In this document: positions 3,736-32,279 of the stretch, piece by piece | Numbering within the stretch: position 1 is the stretch's first letter | Layout: each line of letters opens with the position of its first letter | From: Bacillota bacterium | GTDB lineage: Bacteria; Bacillota; UBA4882; UBA10575 | Assembly (NCBI GenBank): GCA_012839115.1 | Contig: DUNX01000044.1 | Location: forward strand, 1-37,695 | Length of the DNA: 37,695 nt | Direction of reading: 5' to 3' | The notes under the pieces: generated by a model | What the model was told of the DNA's origin: nothing | The model's input: only the letters and a program-made list of their open reading frames with translations | Database searches by the model: none | Translations under genes and position numbers: made by a program

Positions 3736-5241
3736 ATGGCAGATGGCTTCGCAGATAGCTTCTTAGAAATGTCTGGAATAAGCAAAAGATTTGGAGGGGT
3801 TCATGCACTAAACAATGTATCTTTTTCATTACGCAAAGGAGAAGTTCAAGCCATGATTGGCGAAAACGGTGCCGGGAAGAGCACCTTAATAAAGGTGCTG
3901 AGCGGCGCCGTTAAGCCCGACGAGGGGGAGGTTTTTCTGGAAGGGCGCCAACTAAAACTTGGCGACCCGAAAGAATCTATGAAAGCGGGTATTAGAACGG
4001 TTTACCAGGAAATGAGCCTCATCCCCCAGCTTGATGTCGCCAGGAATATCTTCTTAGGTAACGAGCCAGTTTTGAAAGGGGCTTTTATCGACCGTAAGTC
4101 TCTATACGAAAAGGCAGATTCTTTACTTGCTGAACTGGGCATTGAGATTGATCCAAAATGTCCCGTAGGGAAATTGTCAATTGCGGAACGGCAATTAATC
4201 GAAGTTGCGAAAGCGCTATCGATGGACGCCAAAATTATCATTTTTGATGAGCCTACTGCTACCTTGAGCCGGAGAGAAACTGAGGTCTTGTTCGATTTGA
4301 TCTTTAGTTTGAAAAACCGGGGTATCAGTAGTATTTTTATTTCCCACCGGTTAGGGGAGATTTTACCGATTGCCGATCGCGTCACCGTTTTAAAAGACGG
4401 GAGAGTCGTCGCCACCAAGGACAAGAACGAACTGGATATCCCGGAAATGATCCGGCTGATGGTGGGACGCACTGTGAAGTCGCAATTTCCATTACACAAA
4501 AAGACCGGGGAAATTGTACTTTCTGTAAAAGGGATGTCAAGAAAAGGTCTTTTCCAGGATATAAGCTTCGATTTACAGCAGGGCGAGGTTCTTGGGATTG
4601 CCGGTTTGGTAGGTTCCTACCGGACAGAGGTCCTCAAAAGTATCTTCGGCGCTGAACTGCCCGATAAAGGAGAATTTCAGCTTTTTGGCAAGCCTTTCTC
4701 CCCCAAATCACCGATGGATAGCCTTCGCCGGGGAATCGGCTTTGTTCCTGAAAACCGTAAAGAGGAGGGGATCATCCTTCACTTGCCGGTGAGGAATAAC
4801 ATTGTTATTTCCTCCTTGAATCAAGTGTCAAATATGGGTTTTTTGCGTTTGAAAAAAATAGCGGAACTGGCTTCCCGTATGATCAAGGCATTAAGGATCT
4901 CAACCCCCGGTATGAATGGCAAAGGAGAACAGCTTAGCGGGGGTAACCAGCAAAAAGTAGTAATGGCAAAATGGATGGCGGCAAACACCTCGATTCTATT
5001 ATTGGATGAGCCGACACGCGGTATAGATGTGGGGTCAAAAGCCGAACTCCTCAGATTGGTTCATGAATATGCGGAACAAGGTAACTCCGTAATTCTTGTC
5101 TCTTCGGATCTTCAGGAGTTATTCTCGTTGAGTGATCGTATTTTACTGCTGCAAAACGGGCGGGTTATTGGTATCTACAATAGGGAGGAGACTAGCCAGG
5201 AACAGGTCCTGAAAATCTTGATGGAGGGTGAAAAACATTGA
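3736..5241 (+). CDS. Sugar ABC transporter ATP-binding protein (RbsA/MglA type)
   Basis: This 501-residue protein has two fused nucleotide-binding domains and energises uptake by the permease encoded next. The first domain has a good Walker A (GENGAGKST, residues 42-50), a family-typical signature LSIAERQ near 147, and Walker B IIIFDEPTA near 166-174. The second domain has a degenerate P-loop (GLVGSYRTE), as is normal for this family, but an intact LSGGNQQ signature near 399 and LLLDEPTRG near 421. Length and layout match RbsA/MglA/XylG proteins. The ATG is preceded by GGGAGG. The stop overlaps the TTG start of the permease gene, so production of both is likely coupled. Family membership points to a monosaccharide or similar small polyol/lactone substrate. 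Confidence 0.96.
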   Translation: MADGFADSFLEMSGISKRFGGVHALNNVSFSLRKGEVQAMIGENGAGKSTLIKVLSGAVKPDEGEVFLEGRQLKLGDPKESMKAGIRTVYQEMSLIPQLDVARNIFLGNEPVLKGAFIDRKSLYEKADSLLAELGIEIDPKCPVGKLSIAERQLIEVAKALSMDAKIIIFDEPTATLSRRETEVLFDLIFSLKNRGISSIFISHRLGEILPIADRVTVLKDGRVVATKDKNELDIPEMIRLMVGRTVKSQFPLHKKTGEIVLSVKGMSRKGLFQDISFDLQQGEVLGIAGLVGSYRTEVLKSIFGAELPDKGEFQLFGKPFSPKSPMDSLRRGIGFVPENRKEEGIILHLPVRNNIVISSLNQVSNMGFLRLKKIAELASRMIKALRISTPGMNGKGEQLSGGNQQKVVMAKWMAANTSILLLDEPTRGIDVGSKAELLRLVHEYAEQGNSVILVSSDLQELFSLSDRILLLQNGRVIGIYNREETSQEQVLKILMEGEKH

Positions 5242-6203
5242 AATTGAGCAGTAAACGCATTTTCCAAAACAGAAAACTTGTGCAAAATCTACTCCTAGTC
5301 CTGGTCATCCTAGGTTTAACCGTACTTTTCACTGCATTTAACCGGCGGTATTTATCTGTAAACAACTTTTTCAACATAATGACGCAAATGTCCATTAATC
5401 TCATTGTCGCGACTGGAGTTACCTTTGTGGTCATCGCCCGTGGGATCGATCTGTCCATCGGATCTGTTATGGCTATGTCCGGATGTATTGCCGCAGTAAT
5501 GATGGCTAAAGGGGTAAGCATTTTCCCCTCCATCTGTGCCGGCGTCCTCAGCGGCATCTTAGCTGGTATTCTTATCGGCGTTTTGGTGGCCAAAGGGAAA
5601 GTCCCGCCATTTGTGACAACACTCGGTATGATGTCAATTGCACGGGGAATTGCATTAATCATAACCCGCGGCAGAGTAATAATCGGGCTGCCTGATAGAT
5701 TCAACGCAATTGGGCTCGGTTTTATAAAGAAGGTATTCCCAATCCCGGTCCTGATTTCACTGGTGATCTTTGGAATATGTTGGGTTGTGCTTAACCGGAC
5801 TAAATTCGGCTTTTCTGTATTTGCCGCCGGAGGTAATCCTGAGGTTACCCGGTTGTCGGGGATAAATACCGACCGGGTATTGATCAAGGTCTATACGATC
5901 TCCGCCATGTTGGCGGCAGTGGCGGGAATAGTTTTAACGGCACGGGTCTCTTCGGGCCAGCCTAACTTGGCCACCGGCTATGAGTTACAGGCGGTCGCTG
6001 CCGTTGTTATCGGCGGCGCCTCTTTACTTGGAGGAGAGGGAAGTCTTAGTGGAACGTTTTTAGGGGCCAGCCTAATGGCGATGTTGTCGACGGGTTTGAA
6101 TATGCTTAATGTCCATTATTTTTACCAACAAGTTATTATCGGGTGTATCATCATTGGCGCGGTGTTGTTGGATTCTATCCGTAGTAAGGCCAGACTCACA
6201 TAG
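5238..6203 (+). CDS. Sugar ABC transporter permease (RbsC type)
   Basis: This is a 321-residue inner-membrane permease of the BPD_transp_2 (branched-chain/ribose) family, with about eight to ten hydrophobic segments. Visible family marks are VTFVVIARGIDLSIGSVMAMSG near residue 60, a long glycine-rich GVLSGILAGILIGVLVAKGKVPPFVTTLGMM stretch, GGNPEVTRLSGI near 202, and GYELQAVAAVVIGGASLLGGEGSLSGTFLGA near 252. These contact the ATPase and form the channel. Translation starts at a TTG that overlaps the ATPase stop (TTGA), with GGAGGG about 8 bases upstream. It probably works as a homodimer with the fused ATPase and the binding protein downstream. Confidence 0.95.
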   Translation: MKLSSKRIFQNRKLVQNLLLVLVILGLTVLFTAFNRRYLSVNNFFNIMTQMSINLIVATGVTFVVIARGIDLSIGSVMAMSGCIAAVMMAKGVSIFPSICAGVLSGILAGILIGVLVAKGKVPPFVTTLGMMSIARGIALIITRGRVIIGLPDRFNAIGLGFIKKVFPIPVLISLVIFGICWVVLNRTKFGFSVFAAGGNPEVTRLSGINTDRVLIKVYTISAMLAAVAGIVLTARVSSGQPNLATGYELQAVAAVVIGGASLLGGEGSLSGTFLGASLMAMLSTGLNMLNVHYFYQQVIIGCIIIGAVLLDSIRSKARLT

Positions 6204-6247
6204 TTGTTTGGGGAGAGCAACAAAAACAACAAAAAGGGGCGAAAAAC

Positions 6248-7201
6248 GTGAAAACAAGAGGAAGAGTCAGGGTAATAATCTGGTCTTTCATGGCAATCGT
6301 GATGGTAGTAAGTGGAATAGTCTGCAGTAGCGCTCCGAAAAAATGGAAAGTTGGGGTCTCATTACCTGCGGCCGACATACCTTTTTATGTAAATGTTGAG
6401 TATGGAATTAAAGAAGCTGCTAAAGAAATTGGCTCTGATAAGATTGACGTCAAGATTCTTTTCGCAGGTGAAGACCCGGTCAAACAAATGAGGGATCTCG
6501 AGGATTTTGTTCAGTCGGGCGTTGATATCCTGCTGGTTTCCCCGGTGGACGCCGTAGGTTCTGTCGGCCCAATCGAACAGGCGGTCCGGGCAGGTGTTCC
6601 CGTTATAACCCTCGGCCGGAGATCCGAGTCGAAAGCGACCTTGTTTTGGGTAGGCCAGGATGACTATGAGATCGGTGTCAGGATTGCCGAATACATTGTC
6701 AAACGGTTAGGCCGTAAAGGCGGAAAGGTCGCTTTGCTCAGGGGTCCGGAAGGGACTACTTACCCGCAATACCAAGAAGATGGCGTTATGTCCGTCTTCA
6801 AAAAGAACCGGCAGATCAAAGTCGTTACCCGCCTGTCGGGAAGAGATACGATTGAGAGCGGACTTCAGCTTATGCAGGATGTTCTCCAGTCCCATCCGGA
6901 TGTAGATGCAGTATATTGCTGCGCCGACGAAATTGCCTTAGGCGCAATAAATGCGGCTAAAGCTGCTGGGGTTAAAGGTATCATCTTTGCCGGCGGCGGC
7001 GGTGAAAAACCGGGAATGACCGCCATTGAAAAAGGCGAATACGATTATACTTGCATGAAGCAACCGGGTATGATTGGGTATCTGGGCCTGATGAAAGCCT
7101 ACGAGTTCCTGGAGAAATTCCCCAAAATGACCTATACGCCGCTCATCGATGTTACAAAAGAAAATGTTCACAAAGTTGATCGGAAGTGGAATCAGTTCTA
7201 G
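6248..7201 (+). CDS. Sugar ABC transporter periplasmic-type substrate-binding protein
   Basis: This 317-residue member of the RbsB/peripla_BP_4 family has an N-terminal hydrophobic export segment (about residues 8-27, IIWSFMAIVMVVSG) followed by a cysteine at about 26. The residues before that Cys (GIV) do not match a normal lipobox, so lipid anchoring is uncertain. The mature part shows the alternating Rossmann halves: KVGVSLPAADIPFYVNVEYGIKEAAKEIG, then DFVQSGVDILLVSPVDAVGSVGPIEQAVRAGVPVITLGR. The C-terminal lobe has AVYCCADEIALGAINAAKAAG and an FAGGGGEKPGMTAIEKGEYDYT segment. The GTG start follows AAAGGGG. The protein captures the operon's substrate outside the cell; pocket residues do not let me name it. 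Confidence 0.94.
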   Translation: MKTRGRVRVIIWSFMAIVMVVSGIVCSSAPKKWKVGVSLPAADIPFYVNVEYGIKEAAKEIGSDKIDVKILFAGEDPVKQMRDLEDFVQSGVDILLVSPVDAVGSVGPIEQAVRAGVPVITLGRRSESKATLFWVGQDDYEIGVRIAEYIVKRLGRKGGKVALLRGPEGTTYPQYQEDGVMSVFKKNRQIKVVTRLSGRDTIESGLQLMQDVLQSHPDVDAVYCCADEIALGAINAAKAAGVKGIIFAGGGGEKPGMTAIEKGEYDYTCMKQPGMIGYLGLMKAYEFLEKFPKMTYTPLIDVTKENVHKVDRKWNQF

Positions 7202-7314
7202 TTTTGATGCCTGCCTGTTGCTGTTGATCTGAACAAGTACTGCTCTCCCCAAACCTTTTTCCATAAAGAAACACAGGTTCCAGAAAAACTTGACAGACTG
7301 GAGGAATATACACA

Positions 7315-8301
7315 GTGAGCAAATACGATAATGTCGAAGAATTGTCCCTTACGGAGAAGTGGTCGGCTGATGCCCGGCGCGCCTATTGCACCCTGGAAAG
7401 TATGGGGGAAGAATGGTCGGTAACCAATAAAGATGTGGATGAACTGATGAAGGGGGCAATCGATGCCCATGTTCATGGCGCCCCCGACCCGTTGATTGAT
7501 GTCGGATGGGACATGGCGGAAATTGCTAAATATGCCTGTGACGCTGAAATGGGGGCATTGGTTTTTAAAGCCCATACCATCCCGACAGCAGCAACCACTC
7601 TTTTTGTGCAAAATATCGTTGATGAATACGCGGAACAAAACGAGAAAAAAGCGCCCTTAATAATCGGCGGGGTTACTCTTAACAGCTATGTAGGCGGGCT
7701 CAATCCCAAAGCCGTGGAGATGTGTATCAAATTGGGAGGTAGGGTCGTTTGGCTGCCCAGCCACGACGGGGCCCATCACAACAGGGTAATCGGGGAACCC
7801 GGCGGCATCGAACTCCTGACTCCCGCGGGGAAACCCCTGCCGGAACTTGTGGAAATCCTCCATATGGTCAAAGAAGCCGATTTGGTTCTTGATCTTTGCC
7901 ATTCAGGAACAAGGGAAAGGTTTATCATCCTTGAGGAAGCAAACAAAATCGGGCTGAAGAGAATCATGCTCACCCACCCCAACTGGAATGTTAATAAAGC
8001 TTCAGCCGATCAGCAGGCGGAAATGGCCAAAATGGGCGCCTACGTGTTACTCCATTTCTATACCAGCGTACCCCATTTCAATAATCCAAACTGCGACCCC
8101 TGGGAGATGCTGGAGATCATAGAAAAAGTCGGCGTCGACAAAGTAATAGTGGCTACCGACGGGGGTTCGGTCATCAACACCAACCCCGTGGAAATAATGA
8201 AGATTTTTATAAAAATACTGCTGGCAATGAAAGTCTCTCCCGAGGATATAAAACGCATGATTAAGACTAATCCAGCCAAACTGCTGGGACTTGAAGAGTA
8301 G
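7315..8301 (+). CDS. DUF6282-family putative metal-dependent hydrolase
   Basis: This 328-residue protein carries a leader of about 48 residues and then IDAHVHGAPDP (49-59), an HxH metal-binding pair as in amidohydrolase-fold enzymes. Further family marks are FKAHTIPTAATT, GGVTLNSYVGGLNPKAVEMCIKLGG, VVWLPSHDGAHH and, near the end, MLTHPNW, a VIVATDGG strand with Asp, and TNPAKLLGL. Together these resemble DUF6282 proteins, whose reaction is uncharacterised. The GTG start has GGAGGA 8 bases upstream, and the gene follows the binding protein after 113 bases on the same strand. It probably hydrolyses a ring or amide-type bond in the imported substrate. Which bond is unknown, and I would not extend any characterised activity to it. 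Confidence 0.85.
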   Translation: MSKYDNVEELSLTEKWSADARRAYCTLESMGEEWSVTNKDVDELMKGAIDAHVHGAPDPLIDVGWDMAEIAKYACDAEMGALVFKAHTIPTAATTLFVQNIVDEYAEQNEKKAPLIIGGVTLNSYVGGLNPKAVEMCIKLGGRVVWLPSHDGAHHNRVIGEPGGIELLTPAGKPLPELVEILHMVKEADLVLDLCHSGTRERFIILEEANKIGLKRIMLTHPNWNVNKASADQQAEMAKMGAYVLLHFYTSVPHFNNPNCDPWEMLEIIEKVGVDKVIVATDGGSVINTNPVEIMKIFIKILLAMKVSPEDIKRMIKTNPAKLLGLEE

Positions 8302-8315
8302 ACGATTTTCCTTCG

Positions 8316-8330
8316 GCGCGTATGCGCGTG
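8316..8330. repeat. Alternating purine-pyrimidine GC-rich tract, site 3
   Basis: GCGCGTATGCGCGTG is 15 nt of strict alternation, 15 bases after the stop of the DUF6282 gene, inside the operon. It is close to a palindrome (CGCGTATGCGCG). Confidence 0.8.
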
Positions 8331-8345
8331 ATTTATCTTCAATTT

Positions 8346-8412
8346 GGCCGGCATCAGACGTGATACAAATCCAGCTTATTGAAACTTAGAAACCCGCCAA
8401 CAGATGCCGGCC
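8346..8412 (+). other. Intercistronic long-loop stem in the lactone operon
   Basis: GGCCGGCATC (8346-8355) pairs perfectly with GATGCCGGCC (8403-8412) across a 47-nt loop; one more T-A pair extends it. No T run follows, so it is not a normal terminator. It may be an mRNA-processing or stability element that adjusts expression of the last two genes against the transporter genes. Confidence 0.6.
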
Positions 8413-8459
8413 ATTATATACCATAACATGACATCAATTAGAAGAAATGGGAGACGAAA

Positions 8460-9293
8460 ATGCAAAAAAGTAAAGTTAGTTGTTTACCCCTTCTTTTCTT
8501 CGATGAGTTAGTAAAGACAAAAACAATGACTATGGAAGACTGGTTTGCGAGAGCAGTCTCTCTGGGCCTTGGTGGAGTAGAAATGCACCGCAGTTTCCTG
8601 GGGGATGATGACCCCTTTGCCGAAGCCAAAAAAATTGCAAAACTGGCGGAGGGCTATGGGTTGTCAATTTCCATGCTTACCGGTGCTTCTGATTTCACCC
8701 ACCCGCAAAGGGAAGAGAGGGAGCGGCAGGTGGTTCTTTGCTGCGAAAGTATCCAGTTGGCCGAGGTTTTAGGTGCGCCTTATTATCGTTTAACTGCGGG
8801 ACAAGAGCATAAGGGAGTACCCAGAGAGCAGCTCTTTACTTGGGTTGAAGAGGGTTTTGCAAAGTCTCTGAAATATGCGGATAAATTAGGTATTGTCCTT
8901 GCTTATGAGAATCATTACAAGGACTATTACTGGACTTATCCCGATCTTTCCCGTCACATGGAGGATTATTTGCGCATTTTGGCAATGTTTGAGGGTTCGA
9001 ACCTGCGTGTGAATTTTGATACTTCCAATTTGATTGTTGTTGGCGAGGACCCCCTTGCACTGCTGGAGAAAGTCCTCCCGCTCGTGGTTTATGTACACGC
9101 CAGCGACCGGTTGGGCGAAAATATTTACCAACATGGTGTTCCCGGGACCGGTTTGGTGGAATTCAACCGTATTTTTGCGTTGTTGCAGAAAAACAACTAT
9201 ACTGGTTGGATTTCAGTGGAATATAATGGAACAGGTGGCGTTGAAGCTCTCCGTACTGCCATTGATTTTATTCGCAATAATTACAAAGGCTGA
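8460..9293 (+). CDS. Sugar phosphate isomerase/epimerase family TIM-barrel protein
   Basis: This is a 277-residue AP-endonuclease-2-type TIM barrel, the fold of xylulose/hexulose epimerases such as UlaE and IolE/IolI. Signature stretches are FARAVSLGLGGVEMHRSF, AKLAEGYGLSISMLTGASDF, YADKLGIVLAYENHYKDYY (metal ligand Glu), LRVNFDTSNLI (Asp), VVYVHASDR (His) and GWISVEYNGTGG (Glu). This is the usual set for one divalent metal. The ATG has GGGAG about 7 bases upstream. The stop lies in an alternating purine-pyrimidine tract. In the ula pathway a 3-epimerase of this fold acts downstream of the lactonase, so a similar role on the opened lactone is a reasonable guess; isomerase or dehydratase activity is also possible in this fold. 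Confidence 0.9.
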   Translation: MQKSKVSCLPLLFFDELVKTKTMTMEDWFARAVSLGLGGVEMHRSFLGDDDPFAEAKKIAKLAEGYGLSISMLTGASDFTHPQREERERQVVLCCESIQLAEVLGAPYYRLTAGQEHKGVPREQLFTWVEEGFAKSLKYADKLGIVLAYENHYKDYYWTYPDLSRHMEDYLRILAMFEGSNLRVNFDTSNLIVVGEDPLALLEKVLPLVVYVHASDRLGENIYQHGVPGTGLVEFNRIFALLQKNNYTGWISVEYNGTGGVEALRTAIDFIRNNYKG

Positions 9294-9308
9294 TATGCGC
9301 ACGCATGC
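9293..9308. repeat. Alternating purine-pyrimidine GC-rich tract, site 4
   Basis: ATATGCGCACGCATGC is 16 nt of strict alternation; its first base is the last base of the epimerase stop codon. It is followed by ATTTTGCAGCAAG (from 9312), a sequence also found after sites 9 and 10 (25238, and with small changes 35460). Confidence 0.8.
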
Positions 9309-9387
9309 TACCATTTTGCAGCAAGGGATAAAGAAAGTGATAAAGAAAGATTGATTCATTGCTATTTTTGCAGAAGGAGGAGTATTT

Positions 9388-10464
9388 GTGAAAAAGCCAA
9401 ACAAAAACGAGGTTGTAAAATCCGATGGCAGAGGTGTTCCATCCGCTAAATGGCTGGATCAAGATCGAGAAATCACCCGTTCAATTTGGCTTCAAGAGGC
9501 TTTTCCCGAATGGGGAACATTTTTAAACCAACAGATCAATGCGACCGTTGTCGAACCCAAAACGGTAGCCCTTTGGTGGTTTGGTGGGGCCTCTTTCGGG
9601 CTAAGAACACCCAAATCCTTTTTTCTCATTGATAATTACGCAGGCCCGTCAGATTACACAACCTATGACCATTGCGGAGTCTGTAGAACAAGCGGAGCTC
9701 CATCCCTTGAATGGTTGCGACTACACCCGCAAGTAGTGGATCCCTGGGCTTTTGAGCAGATCGATGCGGTTTTATGCACCCATCACCATCAAGATCATTG
9801 CGATATCTACAGCATTAAAGCAGCCCTGCAAACTACGAATGCTTTGTTTATCGGACCGGAAGTAACTTGTCGCAAGTTTCGGGCTTTTGGGGTGCCGGAG
9901 GAACGGATCAGGCAGGTTAAACCGGGTGACACCATCCAATATAAGGATGTCGAGTTGGCAATCGTCCCTAATTATGACCGCATGGCTTGTTTAACCGGTG
10001 AAGAGGTCCAGGATGGCAAGTTGGATTATGGGAAATATGCAGTCAGCTTCTTATTTAAAACAGATGCCGGTGGAATTATTCACTTGGGAGATACTTTATA
10101 CCATAATGGCTACCGGGCGATTGGCGAAAACCACCAGGTGGACCTTTGCCTGACCAATATGGGACATAACGCACCGGGAGTCACAGACAAACTCAATCCA
10201 TATGAGGTCTACCGGATCGCAGAAGCACTAAAAGCTGAAGTTGTAATTCCATATCATTATGATAACTGGGCCAGTTCAGCTCTGGATCCGCAACAACTTG
10301 AAATGGTGGTAAAGGCTAATAGTTCAAAACTTAAAGTCGTCATCCTCAAACACGGGGCAAAATTTGTCTTTCCCAAGGATAATGATATCGGGCACTATCA
10401 ATATCCGGATCTACGGGAGAGGTTCTCTCCGGAAAAATCCTGGGAATACGGGAACAAATCCTAG
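9388..10464 (+). CDS. UlaG-like metallo-beta-lactamase-fold lactonase
   Basis: This 358-residue protein resembles L-ascorbate-6-phosphate lactonase (UlaG) over its whole length: ITRSIWLQEAFPEWGTFLNQQI at the start, LWWFGGASFGLRT, then the metal-binding THHHQDHCDIY near 130-138 (HxHxDH), FIGPEVTCRKFRAFGVPEERI, IHLGDTLYHNGYRAIG, VVIPYHYDNWASS (His), and a C-terminal HYQYPDLRERF matching the UlaG tail. The fold opens lactones using one or two divalent metals. In Escherichia coli UlaG acts on a phosphorylated lactone made by the PTS; this operon has no PTS and no kinase. The substrate may therefore be an unphosphorylated lactone or already carry a phosphate. The GTG start follows AGAAGGAGGAG. It is the last gene before a terminator. 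Confidence 0.9.
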   Translation: MKKPNKNEVVKSDGRGVPSAKWLDQDREITRSIWLQEAFPEWGTFLNQQINATVVEPKTVALWWFGGASFGLRTPKSFFLIDNYAGPSDYTTYDHCGVCRTSGAPSLEWLRLHPQVVDPWAFEQIDAVLCTHHHQDHCDIYSIKAALQTTNALFIGPEVTCRKFRAFGVPEERIRQVKPGDTIQYKDVELAIVPNYDRMACLTGEEVQDGKLDYGKYAVSFLFKTDAGGIIHLGDTLYHNGYRAIGENHQVDLCLTNMGHNAPGVTDKLNPYEVYRIAEALKAEVVIPYHYDNWASSALDPQQLEMVVKANSSKLKVVILKHGAKFVFPKDNDIGHYQYPDLRERFSPEKSWEYGNKS

Positions 10465-14740: not shown

Positions 14741-15286
14741 TCAGATGAGTGCCCTTCCGGGAATTGTGGCCGTATTCAAAACCGTTCCGTCGTTATATTT
14801 ACCCCGTATCACCTCGGCAAAGAGATCTTCGGCGACGTAATGGGCGTAACCGTAATAACCAGAGAGATCATCACTCCATAACCGGATGACTTTCGGGTAA
14901 AAGACAGCCGTCAATACCTGATCCGCCTCCCCCGGCTGCCGGTCGGGGATTATTTCGTGAAAGTATGGGTTGGCGAAGAGGGCGGTTTCAATCATTTGCT
15001 TGAGAGAGAAACCCGGCTCTGTCACATCAGGAGGAATAACCGGTTTTCCCGCCGGACCAATCACGTGGACTCTAATACGGATACTTCCGGAATTATATTC
15101 CTCTTTCAAAACACCGGCAACGGCCGGAGCCCGGTAGCCATCTTCCACAACCACCTCAATAAAGGTGGTGTTGTTTTTTTCGTAGGGATTACGAATAGAG
15201 ATTTCCGGGTCGGTTCCGATGGAGTAGGCAATTTTACGCCACACAGTGTACTGGGCTAGGCTGAGCATGGCATGGGGCCTATTCAT
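14741..15286 (-). CDS. Hypothetical protein
   Basis: This 181-residue protein is one I do not recognise. There is no signal peptide or membrane segment. The sequence is rich in short strands and aromatic residues: PHAMLSLAQYTVWRKIAYSIG, TTFIEVVVEDGYRAPAVAGVLKEEY, IRIRVHVIGPAGKPVIPP, LKQMIETALFANPYFHEIIP and a central VIRLWSDDLSGYYGYAHYVAEDLFAEVIRGKY. The ATG at 15286 is favoured over 15295 because AAGGAG lies 9 bases upstream. A TATAAT-like -10 lies about 40 bases ahead on the same strand. The gene is alone and convergent with the DUF2520 gene. Codon use and composition look like those of its neighbours, so it is probably a real host gene with a soluble beta-rich product. Confidence 0.65.
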   Translation of the reverse strand: MNRPHAMLSLAQYTVWRKIAYSIGTDPEISIRNPYEKNNTTFIEVVVEDGYRAPAVAGVLKEEYNSGSIRIRVHVIGPAGKPVIPPDVTEPGFSLKQMIETALFANPYFHEIIPDRQPGEADQVLTAVFYPKVIRLWSDDLSGYYGYAHYVAEDLFAEVIRGKYNDGTVLNTATIPGRALI

Positions 15287-15375
15287 CTCTACCATCTCCT
15301 TTTGGCCTGTTTTGTTATATTATATGTCATTGCCGGTAAAAAAATACAATATAAAACTAAACTAAAGTGAATCAA

Positions 15376-15562: not shown

Positions 15563-16390
15563 ATGGAGGTTGCAACGGACACCCTGTGGTTTGCTTTCGG
15601 ACTGACTTTATTGGCCGGTTTATCGACGGGGATTGGCAGCCTGATGGCCCTTTATGTTAAGACAACAAATCCAAGATTTCTCTCCGCGACTTTAGGTTTT
15701 TCAGCGGGTGTTATGATTTACGTCTCCATGATTGAGATTATTGCCGAGGCCCGGGCTTCATTGGGGGCGGCCCTTGGGCCGGTCAAGGGCAATTATGTCA
15801 CCACCATCGCTTTTTTTGCCGGGATCGCCGTGGTTGCTTTGATTGATAAACTTGTCCCCTCTGCGGAAAACCCCCACGCTTTGCGGGATGTCCGGGAGAT
15901 GGAGAAGAGGGTGGAGCCGGAGACGGGAAAGGAAGATCTTAACTTGTTGCGGTTGGGTCTGCTTTCTGCTTTGGTGATTGCCATTCACAACTTCCCTGAG
16001 GGTTTGGCGACCTTTATGAGCGCGCTTCAGGACCCGGCCTTGGGGATCAGTATTGCGGTGGCGGTTGCCATTCATAATATCCCGGAAGGGATCGCAGTTT
16101 CTGTACCGGTTTATTACGCAACCGGCGACCGGAAACGGGCTTTTTGCTATTCCTTTCTTTCCGGCCTCTCCGAGCCGCTGGGCGCGATGATCGGGTATTT
16201 CCTGCTCATCCAGTTCTTTAGTGAGGCCATGTTCGGCGTGATCTTTGCGGGAGTGGCCGGGATTATGGTCTATATTTCCCTTGATGAATTGCTGCCGGCT
16301 GCTGAGAAATACGGAGAGCACCATGTGGCGATTTACGGCCTGATCGCAGGGATGGCGGTTATGGCCGTCAGCCTGCTCCTGTTGGGATAA
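15563..16390 (+). CDS. ZIP-family metal ion transporter (ZupT type)
   Basis: This is a 275-residue membrane transporter for zinc, iron or manganese uptake, with eight hydrophobic segments. The metal-pathway motifs of the ZIP family are intact: IAIHNFPEGLATFMSA near residues 138-153 and AVAIHNIPEGIAVSVPVYYATGDRKRAF near 169-196, each containing the HNxPEG signature. Other marks are an N-terminal SLMALYVKTTNPRFLSATLGFSAGVMIYVS and a SLDELLPAAEKYGEHH segment near the end. The cytoplasmic loop around 95-128 is charged rather than His-rich. The ATG has AAGGAGGAGG a short distance upstream. The gene is single; its leader contains the purine tandem repeat. Confidence 0.94.
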   Translation: MEVATDTLWFAFGLTLLAGLSTGIGSLMALYVKTTNPRFLSATLGFSAGVMIYVSMIEIIAEARASLGAALGPVKGNYVTTIAFFAGIAVVALIDKLVPSAENPHALRDVREMEKRVEPETGKEDLNLLRLGLLSALVIAIHNFPEGLATFMSALQDPALGISIAVAVAIHNIPEGIAVSVPVYYATGDRKRAFCYSFLSGLSEPLGAMIGYFLLIQFFSEAMFGVIFAGVAGIMVYISLDELLPAAEKYGEHHVAIYGLIAGMAVMAVSLLLLG

Positions 16391-16471: not shown

Positions 16472-18172
16472 GTGAAAAAACATTACCGGAATTTTTCCGC
16501 CGCTGTCTATTTTACCATCGGGGATCTGGAAAGATATGCGGATCCGGAGTTGCTCGCGGAAAGGGTCGAGTTTCTGCAGAAACACATCAGATGCAATAAG
16601 GTCTATCTGGAGACATTCCGTGGAGGCCACATAATTGAGAGGGAGACAATCCTGAACGCAAAAGAGTTCTTTGCCGGCAGGGGATTTGAAACTGCCGGGG
16701 GGATTACGCCCTTTGCCGGTGTAGGCTGGCGGTTTCAATCATTTTGTTATACCAACCAAGAGCACCTGGCAAAACTGAAGAAGGTGGTGGAATTCACCGC
16801 CGGGATTTTTGACGAGATTATCCTGGACGACTTCTTTTTCACCAATTGCAAATGTGAATCGTGTATCAAAGCCAAGGGAGAGAAAACCTGGTCGCAGTTT
16901 AGAACCGGATTAATGGCGGAGATCTCCCGGGAGGTTGTGGTCAAGACCGCCAAGAAGGTGAATCCTGGGGTCAAGATGGTTATTAAATATCCCAACTGGT
17001 ACGAGTATTACCAAAACACCGGTTACAACCTGGAGGCGGAGCCGGAGATCTTTGATCTGGTTTACACGGGGACAGAGACCAGGAACCCCATGTACACCCA
17101 GCAAAGCCTGCCGAGGTATAACGGGTATTTTCTCATGCGGTACTTGGAAAACATCGCGCCGGGAAAGAACAATGGCGGTTGGTTCGACAGTTTTGACTGT
17201 CTCTATAATCTCGGTTCCTATGCGGAACAGGCCTACCTGACCTTATTCGCCAAAGCGCGGGAGGTCACCCTCTTCTGTGCGGGACTGCTCTTTTCGCGGG
17301 GCAGTATCTTCCTTCCCCTGGCCGGCCATGTCTTTGACCAGGTGGACGGTTTTTTGGGGAAAACCGGCGCCCCTGTGGGCGTCCGTTGTTACAAACCATA
17401 CCACTCGTCAGGAGAGGACTATCTCCATGGGTACCTGGGGATGCTGGGGATTCCCCTGGAACCGGCGGCCAAATTCCCCGCCGGCAGCGAACTGGTGCTT
17501 TTAACTGCCAGCGCCGCCGGGGACAGCGGGATCATCGCCAAGATCAAAGAACACTTGCGGAGCGGGAAAAAGGTGGCAATCACCTCCGGGCTTTTACGAG
17601 CTTTGCAGGAGAAAGGCTTCGCGGAGATCGCGGAGATCAGGGATACCGGAAACAAAGTCTTGGTGCAGGAGTTTGCCTACCCGCCATACGAGTGTTCCTT
17701 CGGGAATTATTATCAAGCGGCAAGAGAGATTCTCATCCCGCAGATCGCGTTTGCCACCAATGACACCTGCCAGCAGATTGTGGGCTTTGGCCCGCAGAAT
17801 AATTTCCCCATTTTGCTGGAGGCGGATTATGGCCCCGGCATGCTGTATGTTTTGACCATCCCGGAAAACCCCGGGGATCTATATGCCTTGCCGGCGGAGG
17901 TTTTGGACGAGATACGCCGGGTCTTAACGGCGGATCTGGACGTCCGGCTGGAAGGCCCGGCCAATGTGGGGCTCTTCCTTTATGATAATAACACCCTGAT
18001 TGTCGAGTCGTTCCTGCCGTACTTTTCCGATCTCAAGATCGTGGTGGAGAAGAAGAATGCCAACCTTGTCGACCTGGTCTCCGGGGAAGAAATCCGCGGG
18101 CAAACAGTGGGTGAGAGAAGTGTTTTCACCATAAAAATGGAACCCACAACCTACCGGGTTTTTCAATACTAA
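16472..18172 (+). CDS. Putative glycoside-hydrolase-like TIM-barrel protein of unknown specificity
   Basis: This 566-residue protein matches no family I can name firmly. The N-terminal half looks like a (beta/alpha)8 barrel: VEFLQKHIRCNKVYLETFRGGHI, a FDEIILDDFFFTNCKCESC strand with paired Asp and a cysteine pair, VKMVIKYPNWYEYYQ, and DLVYTGTETRNP. The paired acidic residues and Glu positions resemble retaining glycosidases. The middle (about 300-450) resembles a flavodoxin-like or trimerisation domain of GH42-type enzymes (GSELVLLTASAAGDSGIIAKIKEHLRSGKKVAITSG), and the C-terminus is a beta-sandwich. No signal peptide is seen. The GTG at 16472 is chosen because it lies about 11 bases after GAAGGGG; the GTG at 16460 touches that site. 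Confidence 0.75.
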   Translation: MKKHYRNFSAAVYFTIGDLERYADPELLAERVEFLQKHIRCNKVYLETFRGGHIIERETILNAKEFFAGRGFETAGGITPFAGVGWRFQSFCYTNQEHLAKLKKVVEFTAGIFDEIILDDFFFTNCKCESCIKAKGEKTWSQFRTGLMAEISREVVVKTAKKVNPGVKMVIKYPNWYEYYQNTGYNLEAEPEIFDLVYTGTETRNPMYTQQSLPRYNGYFLMRYLENIAPGKNNGGWFDSFDCLYNLGSYAEQAYLTLFAKAREVTLFCAGLLFSRGSIFLPLAGHVFDQVDGFLGKTGAPVGVRCYKPYHSSGEDYLHGYLGMLGIPLEPAAKFPAGSELVLLTASAAGDSGIIAKIKEHLRSGKKVAITSGLLRALQEKGFAEIAEIRDTGNKVLVQEFAYPPYECSFGNYYQAAREILIPQIAFATNDTCQQIVGFGPQNNFPILLEADYGPGMLYVLTIPENPGDLYALPAEVLDEIRRVLTADLDVRLEGPANVGLFLYDNNTLIVESFLPYFSDLKIVVEKKNANLVDLVSGEEIRGQTVGERSVFTIKMEPTTYRVFQY

Positions 18173-18230: not shown

Positions 18231-19598
18231 TTAAGGGGTGTGTTTCTCCCCGTCTTTGAGCTTTTTCTTTATGGTCAGCAGCATGGTGGCAAAACAGGCG
18301 ATGCCGCCGATGACTTCGGATATGGGTTCCGCCAGGAAGACGCCACTACTGCCAAGGCCCCAGAGCCTGGGAAGGATGACTACCAGCGGTGTGACGATAA
18401 CCACCTTGCGGAGGGTGGAGAAGAAGATCGCCTGTTTAGACAGGCCTAAAGCAAGGAAGGTTGACTGGCCGGCGTATTGCAATGCCATGATGAAAAAGGC
18501 GGCGTAAAAGAGGCGCATTAACCGTACCCCGGCTGCCAACACCTCCGCCTCGGTGCTGAAAATCCGGATAAAGAAGCCGGGGAAAGCCTGGAGCAGCAGC
18601 CACATGATGGCGGTGTAGAGAACGGAAAGGCCGGCCGTGAATTTAATACAGCTTTTTACCCTTTTGTAAGCCCGGGCGCCGTAGTTGAACCCCATAACCG
18701 GCCGTGCGCCGCTGTTCAACCCGAAGACGGGCAGGGAGATGAGTTCCCGGATGGTATTGATAATCGTCATAACCCCCACATATAAATCGCCGCCGAATTG
18801 CTGAAGGGTGGCGTTGAAGAGGATCAGTACCAGGGAGTTGGTAATGTGTATTATGAACCCGGATGTTCCCAGCCCGGTGATTCTTTTTACCCGTTCCCAT
18901 AAGAGGGTGAAATTTTCTTTTTTCAGGCGCAGGATTGCCTTTTTACCCCTTAAAAACGAAAAGACCCACAAGGCGGAGAGAAACTGGGAGATGATTGTGG
19001 CCAGGGCGGCGCCCCGTACGCCTAACTTGAAGAGGAATATGAAGACCGGATCGAGGATGATGTTTACGACAGCGCCCAGGACTACGGTGATCATGCCGAT
19101 TTTGCCGAACCCTTGGGCATTGATGAAATGGTTCATCCCCAGACTGATCATGACAAAAATGGTCCCCAATAGATAGATGGTTATATACTGATTGGCATAG
19201 GTGAACGTCAGATCACTGGCGCCAAAGAAATATAACACCGGCCTTTTCAGCAGCAAGCCGGCTATGGTCAGAATAACCCCGCTGGTAATGAGCATAACAA
19301 AGGAATTGCCCATGATTTTTTCAGCTTCCTGATAGTTGGCGCGCCCGCGCTCAATGGCACATAGGGGAGCGCCGCCCATGCCGAAAAGGTTGGCAAAAGC
19401 CGTTACCATCGAGATGATAGGAAGGCAGACTCCGACTCCGGTTAAGGCCGGGAAGGCATTCTCCGGCATCCGGCCGATGAAGATCCGGTCCACAATGTTA
19501 TAAAGGACATTGACCAGTTGCGCCAAGATCATCGGTACAGCCATACCCATAATATTCTTAACAATACTGCCTTTGGAGAAGTCGTTTTTTACTTCCAT
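18231..19598 (-). CDS. MATE-family efflux transporter
   Basis: This 455-residue membrane pump of the MATE family has twelve hydrophobic segments in two halves. Family marks are IVKNIMGMAVPMILAQLVNVLYNIVDRIFIGRMP at the start, FPALTGVGVCLPIISMVTAFANLFGMGGAPLCAIERGR, and the second-half GLNSGARPVMGFNYGARAYKRVKSC. The last is typical of the DinF/NorM-like branch of Bacillota. Such pumps expel cationic drugs or other toxic compounds in exchange for sodium or protons; the natural substrate is not predictable. The ATG at 19598 follows GCGGGG by about 10 bases; the ATG at 19607 is too close to that site. It is a single gene with its own promoter and a convergent terminator. Confidence 0.94.
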   Translation of the reverse strand: MEVKNDFSKGSIVKNIMGMAVPMILAQLVNVLYNIVDRIFIGRMPENAFPALTGVGVCLPIISMVTAFANLFGMGGAPLCAIERGRANYQEAEKIMGNSFVMLITSGVILTIAGLLLKRPVLYFFGASDLTFTYANQYITIYLLGTIFVMISLGMNHFINAQGFGKIGMITVVLGAVVNIILDPVFIFLFKLGVRGAALATIISQFLSALWVFSFLRGKKAILRLKKENFTLLWERVKRITGLGTSGFIIHITNSLVLILFNATLQQFGGDLYVGVMTIINTIRELISLPVFGLNSGARPVMGFNYGARAYKRVKSCIKFTAGLSVLYTAIMWLLLQAFPGFFIRIFSTEAEVLAAGVRLMRLFYAAFFIMALQYAGQSTFLALGLSKQAIFFSTLRKVVIVTPLVVILPRLWGLGSSGVFLAEPISEVIGGIACFATMLLTIKKKLKDGEKHTP

Positions 19599-19687
19599 AA
19601 AACACATACCCCGCTTGGATCCCCCGGCTTTTAAGGGCGAAGAGATGCGCCCGTACAGAAAAAACCGGGATTTAGCTGCATATCTGC

Positions 19688-28835: not shown

Positions 28836-31800
28836 CTATTCCCGGTGCACCTGCCTGTCGCCGGAGGATACTCTGTCTGTGGCGTTCGCGCATTTGCACA
28901 CTTGCAGTTCATGCTCATAAAGGCCGATCTCCTCCACCGGCAGCGGGCGGAAGGCAACGGACCTGAACAAAGGAGCATCCGGCCGGAGCCGGAAGAGCCT
29001 GGCAGGCAGAGAACTTTCTGCGCCGGGAGAGCTTCCTGCGCCATCCGCGGTCGCGCCGGTAGCGGAGCCTGTACCGGAAGCAGCGAAGACAGCCAAACCG
29101 CCGGCAAACCCGGGGTCCTCACCGGCGAGAAATTCGGTGTTGGCTATGAGATCAAAGACTTGCCGGTTTGACCGTTCACTCAGCATTTCCCCGCAGGCGT
29201 AAAAGAGGTTGCGCCACAGGTAGTTGCGGCCGTTATCATCCAGCATATATTTGATCTCTGGATAACGGGAAAGGTACAACTGGGTGTTATGGTAATCATT
29301 TTTGGCGAGGTGGTGGGTTCCGTCTTTAAGTCCTTGCCAGATGTAGTTATGAGGGCTCCAGCCACCGGAAACCCCGGTATTACAGGCGTAAAAGATGTTG
29401 TTGTCAAAGATATTATCCCGGCCGGCGTGGATCTGCACACCGCCAAAAACCCCCCGGGAGCAATGGGCGAAGACATTACCGTAGATGATCTGGCCACTGA
29501 TGGTATCATCCAGGCGAAGGCCCGCCTGACCCCAGACGAAGTGTTCGTCGCCGGTTCTGCCGATATGATGGAAGTAGTTGTACCGGAAGGTATTGCCGCG
29601 GTAGGCCGGGTTGCCCCACATATCCACAGCGCCCTGGTCGTCGGATTCGGTGACCGCGTTGTAGGCCTCGTTGAACTCGATGAGATGGTCGTTGCCTCCG
29701 ATCCGCATGACACTGCTGGGGCCGTCATGCATCAAGTTGTGGGCAATCCGGTTGCCCACCCCCACCAGCAGGACGGCAGGGGTGTAAGTGCGGTCAATAC
29801 GGCCGAAGTGGTGGAGGTGGCAGTTTTCAATAAAATGCCTGCCCGGGGTCAAGGTTTTCCGGTCCCCGCCATAGATCTCGGTGGCACTGCGCCCGATAGT
29901 ATGGATCTCACAACCGAAGATGCCGTTGGCGCGGCCGCCGTGAATGACCACGCCCCTGCCGGCGATGCGCCGGATAACACAACCCGCCAGGAGGACATCC
30001 CGGCAGTTGTTGATCTGGATCCCGTCCCAGCGGGCCAGGTCAAAAACCACCCCCTCAAAGCGCAGGTGGGAAAGGTTTTCCATCAACACCAGCGGTTCGG
30101 AGAGCATGCTGATTTCGATTACAGCCGCTTCCGGGTCCGACGGCGGATAGAAGTAAAGGATGCCGCTGGTCCGGTCCAGATACCATTCGCCGGGAATGTC
30201 GATCTCTTCCAGCAGGTTGAAGGCGTAATAAATGATCCCCTGCTCGTTGTCCATGGACTGAAGTTCGTGGGAATACCGGTAGGGGGTGGCGGTGGTAAGG
30301 GTCTTTTCCCCCGGGTCGATGGCGCCGATTTTGATGGTGGAGTCCGCCCAGAGGTAATGGAAATAACCAAAGAGCCACCCATCAGGCGCGTTTACCCAGC
30401 GTTCATGGCGGTCGGCTTCATACCGCAGGACAGCCGGGCGTCCCTTGGCGCCCGGGTCCACCAGTTCCCGGGGGCTGACAAAACCCCGGTTCGGCCAGCG
30501 GGCCAGGGTCATCGGCTCCCCGTTGCAATATAGTTCCAAGGTGGGCGGTGACGGCGGCTGGTTAAAACCGCGGGTCTGTAACTTGCCGTAATCATAAATC
30601 CCCAGTTGCTTAAGGTCGCATTGGTAGACCTTTCCGCGGGCTTCTGCCGGCAGCCGTTGCAGTATGGCCGGGTTGGTAACGGGCGTAAAACCGGATAGAC
30701 GCGTCCCGCCGTACAGGACTGCTTTCCCTTTTTCTTTCGCCCGGAAGACAACGGGGGCGCCCTCAAACCCGGAATCCCCGGCATCCAGTACCAGGCTGGC
30801 AGAGAGGGGGTATTCGCCCGGGGCCAGCAGGATGCCGACAGGGCCGTCGCCGGTCTTTGCCCGCCGTGCTTCGTCACGGGCCCTGGCCAGGGTGGCAAAG
30901 GGGTTTGCCGCCGAACCGTCGCCTTGCTGGTCGTCGCCATCAGGGGCGACATGGATTTCCACAGCAAAGGAATCGATCAGGGTGATCGGTGTTTTGTGGG
31001 CGCCGGTGCGGCCGGCTTCCCGGTCATAGCCGGGCGTTTCCCCAAGACGGTTCCGGATTTCGTCACAGAACTCCCGGGCCTCGTCGCGATGAATTGCCGG
31101 GTATTCGTCATTGGCAACGATCTCCTCATAGACGCCGAGGGCTGCCGGGAAGTTCTCTTCCACCATATAGCTTTGAGCCAGGCGCAGCATGACATAGCTC
31201 CGGTAATGGCCGGGAAGGTTGCTACGGTTCGCCAGATCCCTGCAGATCTCCTGGACAGCGGGAAAATTACCGGCCGCCCAGGCGGCATTGACCTGCTTCA
31301 GGCCTTCATTGGCCGTAATTTGCCAAGGGAGGGAAACCCCGAAAACCTCCTGCAGGCTTTCAAATTCCGCCCGTACCTCGGCAGCGGAAAGGGCCCGCCG
31401 GTAGATTTTTACCTCATCCATTTCCCCAATGTAGTTCTGCCAGGAACTGCCCACGGTCAGCGTGCCGTTGAGCAAAAAGTCCCCGGCAAACCCGGGGGGG
31501 ATTGCGGCCGGGGCGCCGCCCAGGGCGTTCAAGAAAAACTCCATGGTCCCGTTTTCCCTGTCCACCACCAAGACCAGGTAGGCCCATTCGTCGATCCGCA
31601 AAGGCGCCGCGCCAGTGGCGCCGGTGTCGATATTCTTACCCTGTTGGTCCTGGTAACACAAATAGCAACTGGGACGTCCGTCCTCCAGGATATTAATGAC
31701 CAGTGTGGCCGCGGGGTATTCCCCAAAAGAAAAGATCCGCCGGTGCTTCAGTTCGGCATTGATTGAGAATTGCCGGGGCTTGAGCCAGGCTGAAAAAGTC

Positions 31801-32084
31801 CACGAACCGGTCCCGAATCGCCGGTCTTCAGGTAAAACCACCCGCACGACCGAATCAGAACGGCCGTTAAAATAAAGGGCGCTGCCGGAGGGGGCCTTTT
31901 TTCGCCAGCGGGCCCCGACCTCTCCACGCAGGCCGTTGCCAGAGTAATCCCGGGTAGAAGTCCCTCTTCCCTCGTCAAACCGCCAATGGATCAAGAGGCC
32001 GTTTTCTTGGGCAAGGGTCCGGGGGAGTGCTGTTGGTAAGATGAAACAAAGGAGCAATAATATTGGTAAGAACCGTCGCCGCAT
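28836..32084 (-). CDS. Secreted LamG plus right-handed parallel beta-helix protein
   Basis: This is a 1,082-residue exported protein. The start at 32084 is chosen for its ACGGAGG ribosome site and because a signal peptide begins there (RRRFLPILLLLCFILPTALP, cleavage probably after TLA). Residues about 30-245 form a LamG/concanavalin-like domain (LLIHWRFDEGRGTSTRDYSGNG, WTFSAWLKP, YIGEMDEVKIYRRALSAAEV). A helical, TPR-like region follows (about 250-350), then a parallel beta-helix from about 375 on (IHVAPDGDDQQGDGSAANPFATLARARDEAR, then the CRDVLLAGCVIRRIAGRGVVIHG, NRIAHNLMHDGPSSVMRIGGNDHLIEFNEAY and RYNYFHHIGR rungs). Such proteins bind or cleave polysaccharides. The natural end is probably IGLYEHE; about 25 odd residues (CKCANATDRVSSG) follow. 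Confidence 0.9.
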   Translation of the reverse strand: MRRRFLPILLLLCFILPTALPRTLAQENGLLIHWRFDEGRGTSTRDYSGNGLRGEVGARWRKKAPSGSALYFNGRSDSVVRVVLPEDRRFGTGSWTFSAWLKPRQFSINAELKHRRIFSFGEYPAATLVINILEDGRPSCYLCYQDQQGKNIDTGATGAAPLRIDEWAYLVLVVDRENGTMEFFLNALGGAPAAIPPGFAGDFLLNGTLTVGSSWQNYIGEMDEVKIYRRALSAAEVRAEFESLQEVFGVSLPWQITANEGLKQVNAAWAAGNFPAVQEICRDLANRSNLPGHYRSYVMLRLAQSYMVEENFPAALGVYEEIVANDEYPAIHRDEAREFCDEIRNRLGETPGYDREAGRTGAHKTPITLIDSFAVEIHVAPDGDDQQGDGSAANPFATLARARDEARRAKTGDGPVGILLAPGEYPLSASLVLDAGDSGFEGAPVVFRAKEKGKAVLYGGTRLSGFTPVTNPAILQRLPAEARGKVYQCDLKQLGIYDYGKLQTRGFNQPPSPPTLELYCNGEPMTLARWPNRGFVSPRELVDPGAKGRPAVLRYEADRHERWVNAPDGWLFGYFHYLWADSTIKIGAIDPGEKTLTTATPYRYSHELQSMDNEQGIIYYAFNLLEEIDIPGEWYLDRTSGILYFYPPSDPEAAVIEISMLSEPLVLMENLSHLRFEGVVFDLARWDGIQINNCRDVLLAGCVIRRIAGRGVVIHGGRANGIFGCEIHTIGRSATEIYGGDRKTLTPGRHFIENCHLHHFGRIDRTYTPAVLLVGVGNRIAHNLMHDGPSSVMRIGGNDHLIEFNEAYNAVTESDDQGAVDMWGNPAYRGNTFRYNYFHHIGRTGDEHFVWGQAGLRLDDTISGQIIYGNVFAHCSRGVFGGVQIHAGRDNIFDNNIFYACNTGVSGGWSPHNYIWQGLKDGTHHLAKNDYHNTQLYLSRYPEIKYMLDDNGRNYLWRNLFYACGEMLSERSNRQVFDLIANTEFLAGEDPGFAGGLAVFAASGTGSATGATADGAGSSPGAESSLPARLFRLRPDAPLFRSVAFRPLPVEEIGLYEHELQVCKCANATDRVSSGDRQVHRE

Positions 32085-32279
32085 CTTTTTTACCTCCGTT
32101 GCAAGTTTCATTATTGACGACCTTGACCTGACCTTTCTTTATTTCCTGAATCGTGCTGATATAAATATTATCGGTAGAAATATTTATATTTTGAGGACGC
32201 TGCGGTATATAATTTATAGTGTAGATGCCAGTTTCAATCAGAAGCTCGCTGAGATCAAAGGGTATATTAATGAAAATCC

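What the first reader, a model, noticed from the sequence alone, without database searches (positions are those of the whole stretch)
16472..18172. Unassigned glycosidase-like protein with barrel, middle and sandwich domains
The protein has a barrel-type start with a DDFFFTNCKCESC segment, and its later domains resemble GH42-type accessory domains, yet I cannot place it in a known glycoside-hydrolase family. A cysteine pair beside the acidic residues is unusual and may bind a metal. In a window with GH39 and GH10 genes, it may be a new carbohydrate-active enzyme.
Basis: inference. Interest (0 to 1): 0.5.

Follow-up and report, generated by a model that had tools for sequence, protein, structure and literature searches.

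The report
Unclassified GH42-like sugar-cleaving enzyme family
This gene very probably makes a sugar-cleaving enzyme that looks like the galactosidase and fucosidase enzymes bacteria use on plant fibre, but it belongs to a family of its own that has no entry in the curated libraries searched and whose sugar target is still unknown.

Summary
The ORF is real: 16472-18172 (+), 566 aa, Ka/Ks about 0.1. It belongs to a conserved family; 40 members were aligned. None of the 40 has a significant Pfam or NCBIfam match, and no PDB chain matches by sequence. An AlphaFold model (pLDDT 92) shows a TIM barrel, a Rossmann-like domain and a beta-sandwich; its full-length structural neighbours are GH42, GH164 and GH151. 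The 'cysteine pair' is a quartet, C92 plus C126-x-C128-xx-C131, invariant in 40 of 40, in the register of the GH42 zinc site. Asp119 lies in the register of the GH151 nucleophile; invariant Glu202 follows strand 6, where GH151 has its acid/base. At least 8 of 41 loci have plant-glycan genes close by; 9 of 41 carry an AraC regulator and a MATE pump. Verdict: an unclassified glycoside-hydrolase family of known fold. Substrate, metal and catalytic pair are inferred.

The parts
16472..18172 (+). Gene of the unclassified GH42/GH151-like family, 566 aa plus stop, GTG start; no signal peptide seen by eye
16472..17371 (+). Domain A: (beta/alpha)8 barrel, residues 1-300 (strands 9-14, 43-50, 73-78, 115-118, 168-173, 196-200, 233-239, 264-268)
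   Evidence: model and DSSP, (boundary set by me); 38 of the 47 invariant columns lie in residues 1-300
16745..16747 (+). Cys92, proposed fourth zinc ligand
   Evidence: invariant 40 of 40; hhalign places it on the upstream Cys of GH42 and of GH151
16826..16831 (+). Asp119-Asp120 just after strand 4. Asp119 is in the register of the GH151 nucleophile D154; Asp120 is near that of the GH42 acid/base
   Evidence: invariant 40 of 40; PMC10154630 (passages)
16847..16864 (+). Cys126-x-Cys128-x-x-Cys131, CxCxxC motif, proposed zinc site
   Evidence: invariant 40 of 40; same spacing as Gal42 C153/C155/C158 and 6tvk C161/C163/C166
17075..17083 (+). Glu202-Thr-Arg204 just after strand 6 (YTGTETR); proposed acid/base
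   Evidence: Glu202 and Arg204 invariant 40 of 40; strand 6 ends at residue 200
17180..17188 (+). Trp237-x-Asp239 at the end of strand 7; Asp239 is the rival nucleophile in a clan GH-A type scheme
   Evidence: W237 and D239 invariant 40 of 40; strand 233-239
17372..17929 (+). Domain B: Rossmann-like domain of the GH42 trimerisation type, about residues 301-486
   Evidence: boundary set by me; C-terminal half against GH42 87.7%; 5 of 40 members touch Glyco_hydro_42M, best E 0.021
17930..18169 (+). Domain C: beta-sandwich, about residues 487-566
   Evidence: boundary set by me
18231..19607 (-). MATE-family transporter, convergent neighbour. It did not cluster, at the threshold used, with the MATE genes of the AraC-enzyme-MATE modules, so the link here may be chance
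   Evidence: Pfam MatE E 1.6e-35; clustering

Best explanation
A cytoplasmic exo-glycosidase of an unclassified glycoside-hydrolase family in the GH42/GH151/GHL6 superfamily. Shown: the conserved ORF, the predicted three-domain fold, invariant acidic residues at barrel strand ends, the invariant C / CxCxxC quartet, and the gene neighbourhoods. Inferred: (1) the four cysteines hold a structural zinc beside strand 4, as in GH42; (2) the middle domain makes a trimer and may help close the active site of a neighbouring subunit; (3) cleavage is retaining, with Asp119 (strand 4) as nucleophile and Glu202 (strand 6) as acid/base, as proposed for GH151; (4) substrates are short plant-cell-wall oligosaccharides or plant glycosides brought into the cell.
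For: Model pLDDT 92.0, pTM 0.92. Foldseek: GH42 5dfa E 3.6e-22, GH164 6t7g 1.7e-20, alpha-L-fucosidase 6tvk 3.5e-20. VIA-align: GH42 1kwg Z 22.6 over 490 residues, GH164 6t7g Z 22.6 over 522, 6tvk Z 19.8 over 523. Local hhalign of the 40-row profile: 89.6% to 8 GHL6 proteins and 71.8% to 18 GH42 proteins, at most 1.2% to 8 control sets; 85.7% to 9 GH151-like proteins. In 6tvk the nucleophile D154 is followed by Cys at +7, +9 and +12; Asp119 of the target is followed by Cys at +7, +9 and +12. D119, D120, E202, D239, C92, C126, C128 and C131 are invariant in 40 of 40. Glycan genes close by in at least 8 of 41 loci.
Against: Asp120 and Asp239 are equally invariant and fit a GH42-like pair. hhalign placed Glu202 on a Glu two residues before the GH151 acid/base, with low confidence. 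A GH151 profile of only two rows gave 6.8%, and six GHL6 proteins without the two GH151 members gave 31.6%. Most of the 41 loci show no glycan genes next to the gene. Metal and activity are untested. The retaining mechanism of GH151 itself is described as probable, not demonstrated.
Confidence: 0.55

Rival explanations
1. The same unclassified glycosidase, but with a clan GH-A type pair: Asp120 (strand 4) as acid and Asp239 (strand 7) as nucleophile or base, where GH42 and GH164 use Glu. The shorter Asp side chains would widen the gap and might make it inverting.
For: Asp120 and Asp239 are invariant in 40 of 40. Strand 7 ends exactly at Asp239. GH42 and GH164 are the top full-length fold matches. 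In Cwp19 the exposed acidic residue Asp196 matches the GH42 acid/base Glu161, while Asp195 is buried (PMC5765458, passages).
Against: GH42 has Asn-Glu at strand 4 and Glu at strand 7; here they are Asp-Asp and Asp. It leaves invariant Glu202 without a role. Cwp19 itself lacks the strand-7 acid (Gly328).
Confidence: 0.25
2. A glycoside phosphorylase or transglycosylase with a GH42-like fold, needing only one acidic catalytic residue.
For: Two loci place it near GH94 proteins (L086, L094), and the GH112 phosphorylases resemble GH42 (recalled). The beta-1,2-glucosyltransferase of Ignavibacterium album matches the fold at Z 20.2 over 500 residues.
Against: Several acidic residues are invariant. 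No phosphate site was identified (not searched for beyond the family scans). The GH94 neighbours probably do that step themselves.
Confidence: 0.1
3. A catalytically dead, structural or sugar-sensing relative of glycosidases.
For: Small modules with an AraC regulator (9 of 41 loci) could suit a sensor.
Against: 38 of 47 invariant columns fall in the barrel, among them Asp119, Asp120, Glu202, Arg204, Trp237 and Asp239 at strand ends, which is how an active enzyme is conserved.
Confidence: 0.07

Closest known systems
GH151 alpha-L-fucosidases / Pfam GHL6 (PF14871), e.g. ALfuk2, PDB 6tvk
   Same: Barrel, Rossmann-like domain and sandwich; Asp at strand 4 followed by CxCxxC at +7; an upstream Cys; Glu at or near the end of strand 6; profile match 85.7% (GH151-like rows) and 89.6% (GHL6 rows, two genes shared)
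   Different: Not recognised by the GHL6 model (0 of 40). Further from GH151 than GH42 is (GH42 against GH151 99.8% in the same test). Second Asp at strand 4; about 570-600 aa against 639-693 for the GH151-like rows
GH42 beta-galactosidases (1kwg, 5dfa, 3tts)
   Same: Whole three-domain architecture; C / CxCxxC cluster beside strand 4; middle domain
   Different: Asp-Asp instead of Asn-Glu at strand 4; Asp instead of Glu at strand 7; 9 to 12% identity in the GH42 rows
GH164 beta-mannosidase Bs164 (6t7g)
   Same: Three domains with a trimerisation-type middle domain; Z 22.6 over 522 residues
   Different: GH164 uses Glu160 (strand 4) and Glu297 (strand 7); the target has Asp at both places
GHL10 / Cwp19 and GH153 / PgaB
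   Same: Barrel Z 23.7 (Cwp19) and 20.9 (PgaB); Cwp19 has Asp195-Asp196 in the register of GH42 Asn160-Glu161; PgaB has D474 as probable catalytic acid, at the same place by my inference
   Different: Barrel only aligned (272-277 residues); GHL10 profile match only 16.2%

Membership tests
GH42 | Pfam Glyco_hydro_42 / 42M match over the curated cut-off | tested here: not met
   Glyco_hydro_42: 0 of 40 at E up to 0.1; 42M: 5 of 40 touch it, best E 0.021
GH42 | Asn-Glu at strand 4 (acid/base) and Glu at the end of strand 7 (nucleophile) | tested here: not met
   Asp119-Asp120 and Asp239 instead, invariant 40 of 40; GH42 residues from PMC8573354 and PMC7105311 (passages)
GH42 | Barrel / Rossmann-like / sandwich architecture | tested here: met
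   (predicted model)
GH42 | Cys4 cluster (upstream C plus CxCxxC), present in many but not all GH42 | tested here: met
   Four invariant Cys in 40 of 40; metal itself not tested
GH151 / GHL6 (PF14871) | Pfam GHL6 match over the cut-off | tested here: not met
   0 of 40 at E up to 0.1
GH151 / GHL6 (PF14871) | Asp (nucleophile) at the end of strand 4 | tested here: met
   Position only: Asp119 aligns without a gap, Cys at +7/+9/+12 as in 6tvk; 7 of 9 GH151-like rows keep the +7 spacing
GH151 / GHL6 (PF14871) | Glu (acid/base) at the end of strand 6 | tested here: inconclusive
   Invariant Glu202 two residues after strand 6, but hhalign sets it two residues off with low confidence
GH151 / GHL6 (PF14871) | alpha-L-fucosidase activity | not testable with these tools
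   needs an assay
GH164 | Glu at strand 4 and Glu at strand 7 | tested here: not met
   Asp119-Asp120 and Asp239, invariant; GH164 residues from PMC7105311 (passages)
GHL10 (PF02638) | Pfam match over the cut-off | tested here: not met
   0 of 40 at E up to 0.1; hhalign 16.2%
CAZy families without a Pfam, NCBIfam or PDB record | CAZy sequence assignment | not testable with these tools

The most novel reading that the evidence does not exclude
The founding member of a new glycoside-hydrolase family with a di-aspartate strand-4 active site. In several lineages it works with an AraC regulator and a MATE pump as a small module that splits imported plant glycosides in the cytoplasm and pumps the freed aglycone or by-product back out.
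Probability: 0.2. Interest if true: 0.6.

Novelty: new variant of a known kind. Interest (0 to 1): 0.42.

Why it matters
New enzyme activities on plant fibre are found through families of this kind. This one occurs in many families of anaerobic bacteria of one phylum and has no curated record in the libraries searched. It has a readable active-site signature (FDExxxDDFxFTxCxCxxC with few exceptions, GTETR, GWxD or variants), so one biochemical study would annotate the whole family. The AraC and MATE neighbours raise a testable question: why would a sugar-cleaving enzyme travel with an export pump?

Tried and rejected
The first AlphaFold job, on 6 rows, gave a poor model (pLDDT 54.2) and was not used; the 40-row alignment gave pLDDT 92.0.

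The ZIP zinc transporter gene just upstream (15563-16390) was considered as a zinc partner. It is also upstream in L001 of the same genus. I did not search the other loci for ZIP genes, so nothing is built on it.

The MATE gene in the window is convergent and did not cluster with the module MATE genes, so I do not claim the module for the window.

No relative was found in viral contigs or plasmids. The viral fold library gave only weak, partial matches (best TM-score over the query 0.36). The genome-contig scan uses exact peptide patterns from one protein and found two loci, both near relatives; so other phyla were not properly searched.

Rows left out of A3: fragments (L002/L009, L008/L025, L011), the deletion remnant (L029/L032), two weak partial hits (L074, L075), four close copies from genus g141 (L017, L018, L019, L021), and loci that repeat a row already present. 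Kept in spite of flaws: L006 (masked C-terminus) and L001 (frame shifted in its last stretch).

hhalign: the 8 control sets had 1 to 3 rows each, so they are weaker than the test profiles. On the two halves alone the controls reached at most 2.1%. A global run against GH42 gave 98.3% but I rely on the local 71.8%. A global run of the barrel against GH151 aligned only 16 residues (0.1%). An alignment of the strand-7 motif to GH151 by eye disagreed with hhalign and was dropped.

Neighbourhood labels come from phmmer against a few reference genes, from clustering, from Pfam on chosen genes or, where said, by eye. Several loci end near the gene (L001, L083, L086, L087, L105), so neighbours can be missed there. 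Beyond the 9 module loci, a MATE label lies within two ORFs in the window and in L102 (weak, 29 bits), three ORFs away in L096, and a weak AraC label in L088 and L092.

Papers: nine searches. Passages were seen of PMC8573354, PMC5765458, PMC5933820, PMC10154630, PMC8395109 and PMC7105311; of the other papers only listings. No description of this family turned up; the library is open-access PMC only, so this is weak evidence of absence.

Full report
What was checked. A GTG at 16460 is in frame, but the ORFs of L001, L005, L006 and L010 begin at or within two residues of the one encoded at 16472 and GAAGGGG precedes it. Selection is purifying: Ka/Ks 0.12 against L001 and 0.08 against L005 (synonymous sites nearly saturated in the second; infinite Ks against L007). 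DDFFFTNCKCESC is residues 119-131.

A family of its own. The protein has no Pfam match, no NCBIfam match and no meaningful PDB sequence match (best E 0.58). For the 40 aligned members the best Pfam E-value is 0.014, to an unrelated DUF in 1 of 40, and 5 of 40 touch Glyco_hydro_42M at best E 0.021; the best NCBIfam E is 0.0081, an unrelated family in 4 of 40; the 40-row profile against the PDB gives best E 0.37, unrelated. Homologues were found in 7 of 41 relatives, 7 of 29 genomes of the class, 19 of 398 of the phylum, 28 of 392 of the order of G166 (2 of the 28 are weak partial hits), 2 of 59 of the class of G358 and 2 of 19 of the order of G122. These sets overlap. The nearest named relative is a Bacillota MAG (L001, 87% identical). 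Other phyla were not properly searched.

Fold. With the 40-row alignment AlphaFold2 gave pLDDT 92.0 and pTM 0.92: a TIM barrel (residues 1-300), a Rossmann-like domain (about 301-486) and a beta-sandwich (about 487-566); the boundaries are mine. Foldseek ranks GH42 beta-galactosidases first (5dfa, E 3.6e-22), with GH164 beta-mannosidase (1.7e-20) and the alpha-L-fucosidase 6tvk (3.5e-20) next. VIA-align gives Cwp19 Z 23.7 (barrel only, 276 residues), GH42 1kwg Z 22.6 over 490, GH164 Z 22.6 over 522 and 6tvk Z 19.8 over 523. Identities are 7 to 13%, so this shows fold, not activity.

Where it sits among the families. Local hhalign of the 40-row profile gave 89.6% to 8 GHL6 proteins, 71.8% to 18 GH42 proteins, 16.2% to 15 GHL10 proteins and at most 1.2% to 8 control sets. 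To 9 GH151-like proteins it gave 85.7%, but only 6.8% when just two GH151 rows were used, and 31.6% to the six GHL6 proteins without those two. The GHL6 and GH151-like sets share two genes (L136 and L137, refetched as L191 and L192), so they are not independent. In the same kind of test GH42 against GH151 gave 99.8%, GH151 against GHL10 98.9%, GH151 against GH29 94.8% and GH42 against GHL10 76.2%. By this measure the new family is further from GH42 and GH151 than those two CAZy families are from each other. The C-terminal half alone matches GH42 at 87.7% and the barrel alone at 81.5%. L136 is a close GH151 relative: phmmer to 6tvk E 9.9e-134.

Active site. Of 47 invariant columns, 38 lie in residues 1-300. 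At or near strand ends are Glu47 and Arg50 (strand 2), Asp119-Asp120 (strand 4), Lys172 (strand 5), Glu202 and Arg204 (strand 6), Trp237 and Asp239 (strand 7). GH151 ALfuk2 is assigned nucleophile D154 at the end of strand 4 and acid/base E235 at the end of strand 6, from mutagenesis, docking and QM/MM; its retaining mechanism is called probable (PMC10154630, passages). In the 6tvk sequence printed, D154 is followed by cysteines at +7, +9 and +12; Asp119 of the target is followed by Cys126, 128 and 131 at +7, +9 and +12, and the printed hhalign match has no gap there. Seven of the nine GH151-like rows keep the +7 spacing; L196 and L200 have insertions. Glu202 lies just after strand 6, but hhalign put it on the Glu two residues before E235, at low confidence, so this half is weaker. 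The rival pair is Asp120 with Asp239, the GH42/GH164 strands (GH164 Glu160 and Glu297: PMC7105311, passages). In Cwp19 Asp196 matches the GH42 acid/base and Asp195 is buried (PMC5765458, passages); PgaB has D474 as probable catalytic acid (PMC5933820, passages). I could not measure distances, as the model's coordinates were not given.

Cysteines. Cys92, 126, 128 and 131 are invariant in 40 of 40. The GH42 enzyme Gal42 is modelled to bind zinc through Cys113, 153, 155 and 158 beside its acid/base Glu148. Its authors cite earlier work that the zinc is structural, while their own abstract claims a role in stability and catalysis, and they note that the cluster is not universal in GH42 (PMC8573354, passages). 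The target most likely has the same kind of zinc site; metal binding is untested.

Genome context. In L035 and L036 (genus g96) the order is LacI-like regulator, two permease-like genes, binding protein (these four named by eye), target, GH29, GH42, GH31 (Pfam on L035) and a GH51-like gene (by eye). L083 has two permeases, a binding protein and GH113; L086 a LacI-like gene, a permease and GH94; L094 permeases, a binding protein, GH94 and GH10; L097 GH3 and GH31. L033 and L034 have GH28 two genes away. That makes at least 8 of 41 loci; many of the others sit among housekeeping genes. In 9 of 41 loci (four families, six genera) an AraC regulator and a MATE pump lie within three ORFs, in two gene orders. 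In L082 and L084 the MATE and enzyme frames overlap by 17 and about 14 bp (my count). Ten genomes, nine of them holding a module or its source, have 9 to 40 MatE matches each, and one protein often gives two matches, so adjacency in 9 of 41 loci is unlikely to be chance, though close relatives are not independent. On the tree the module label needs three changes, and well-supported branches force at least two; 5 of 500 label shuffles were as low. The window gene nests in a clade with three module members, but it has no AraC label within three ORFs and its MATE neighbour is of another cluster.

Mechanism: shown and inferred. Shown: family, predicted fold, invariant residues, contexts. Inferred: structural zinc, trimer, retaining cleavage with Asp119 and Glu202, and substrates that are short plant oligosaccharides or glycosides inside the cell (no signal peptide seen by eye). 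I hold 0.55 for the whole scheme, and about 0.85 that it is a glycoside hydrolase at all.

Novelty. An unclassified family inside a known superfamily, hence 'new variant of a known kind'. CAZy itself could not be consulted, so a family number may already exist. Searches of open-access papers found no description.

Noticed in passing
L045 9218-9860 (G202, contig of 2,919,718 bp): Only about the first 148 and last 61 codons of the family gene remain, an internal deletion, while six other genomes of the same genus hold a full-length copy. The contig size equals that recalled for Caldicellulosiruptor bescii.
   Followed up: partly
L082 5690-9772, L084 8034-12118, L040 6604-10800, L041 3659-7831: AraC regulator, MATE pump and this glycosidase form a compact module in two gene orders, with overlapping MATE and enzyme frames in L082 and L084.
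   Followed up: partly
window 15563-16390: ZIP-family zinc transporter directly upstream on the same strand.
   Followed up: partly
window 3736-10464: Sugar-type ABC importer (ATPase, permease, binding protein) followed by a DUF6282 protein, a xylose-isomerase-like barrel and a beta-lactamase-fold protein.
   Followed up: no
window 28836-32111: 1091-aa protein on the - strand with a LamG-like domain and a right-handed beta-helix; looks secreted by eye.
   Followed up: no
window 14741-15295: 184-aa ORF without a Pfam match at E up to 0.001, with a relative in L001.
   Followed up: no
window 33720-35431: PfkB-type sugar kinase next to a KDPG/KHG aldolase, a possible sugar-acid pathway.
   Followed up: no
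L041 4615-6342 and L042 8978-10783: Genome G020 holds two paralogues of the family (62% and about 42% identical to the window protein).
   Followed up: no
L001 9650-9734: The orthologue of the nearest named relative reads out of frame in its last stretch; a real frameshift or an assembly error.
   Followed up: no
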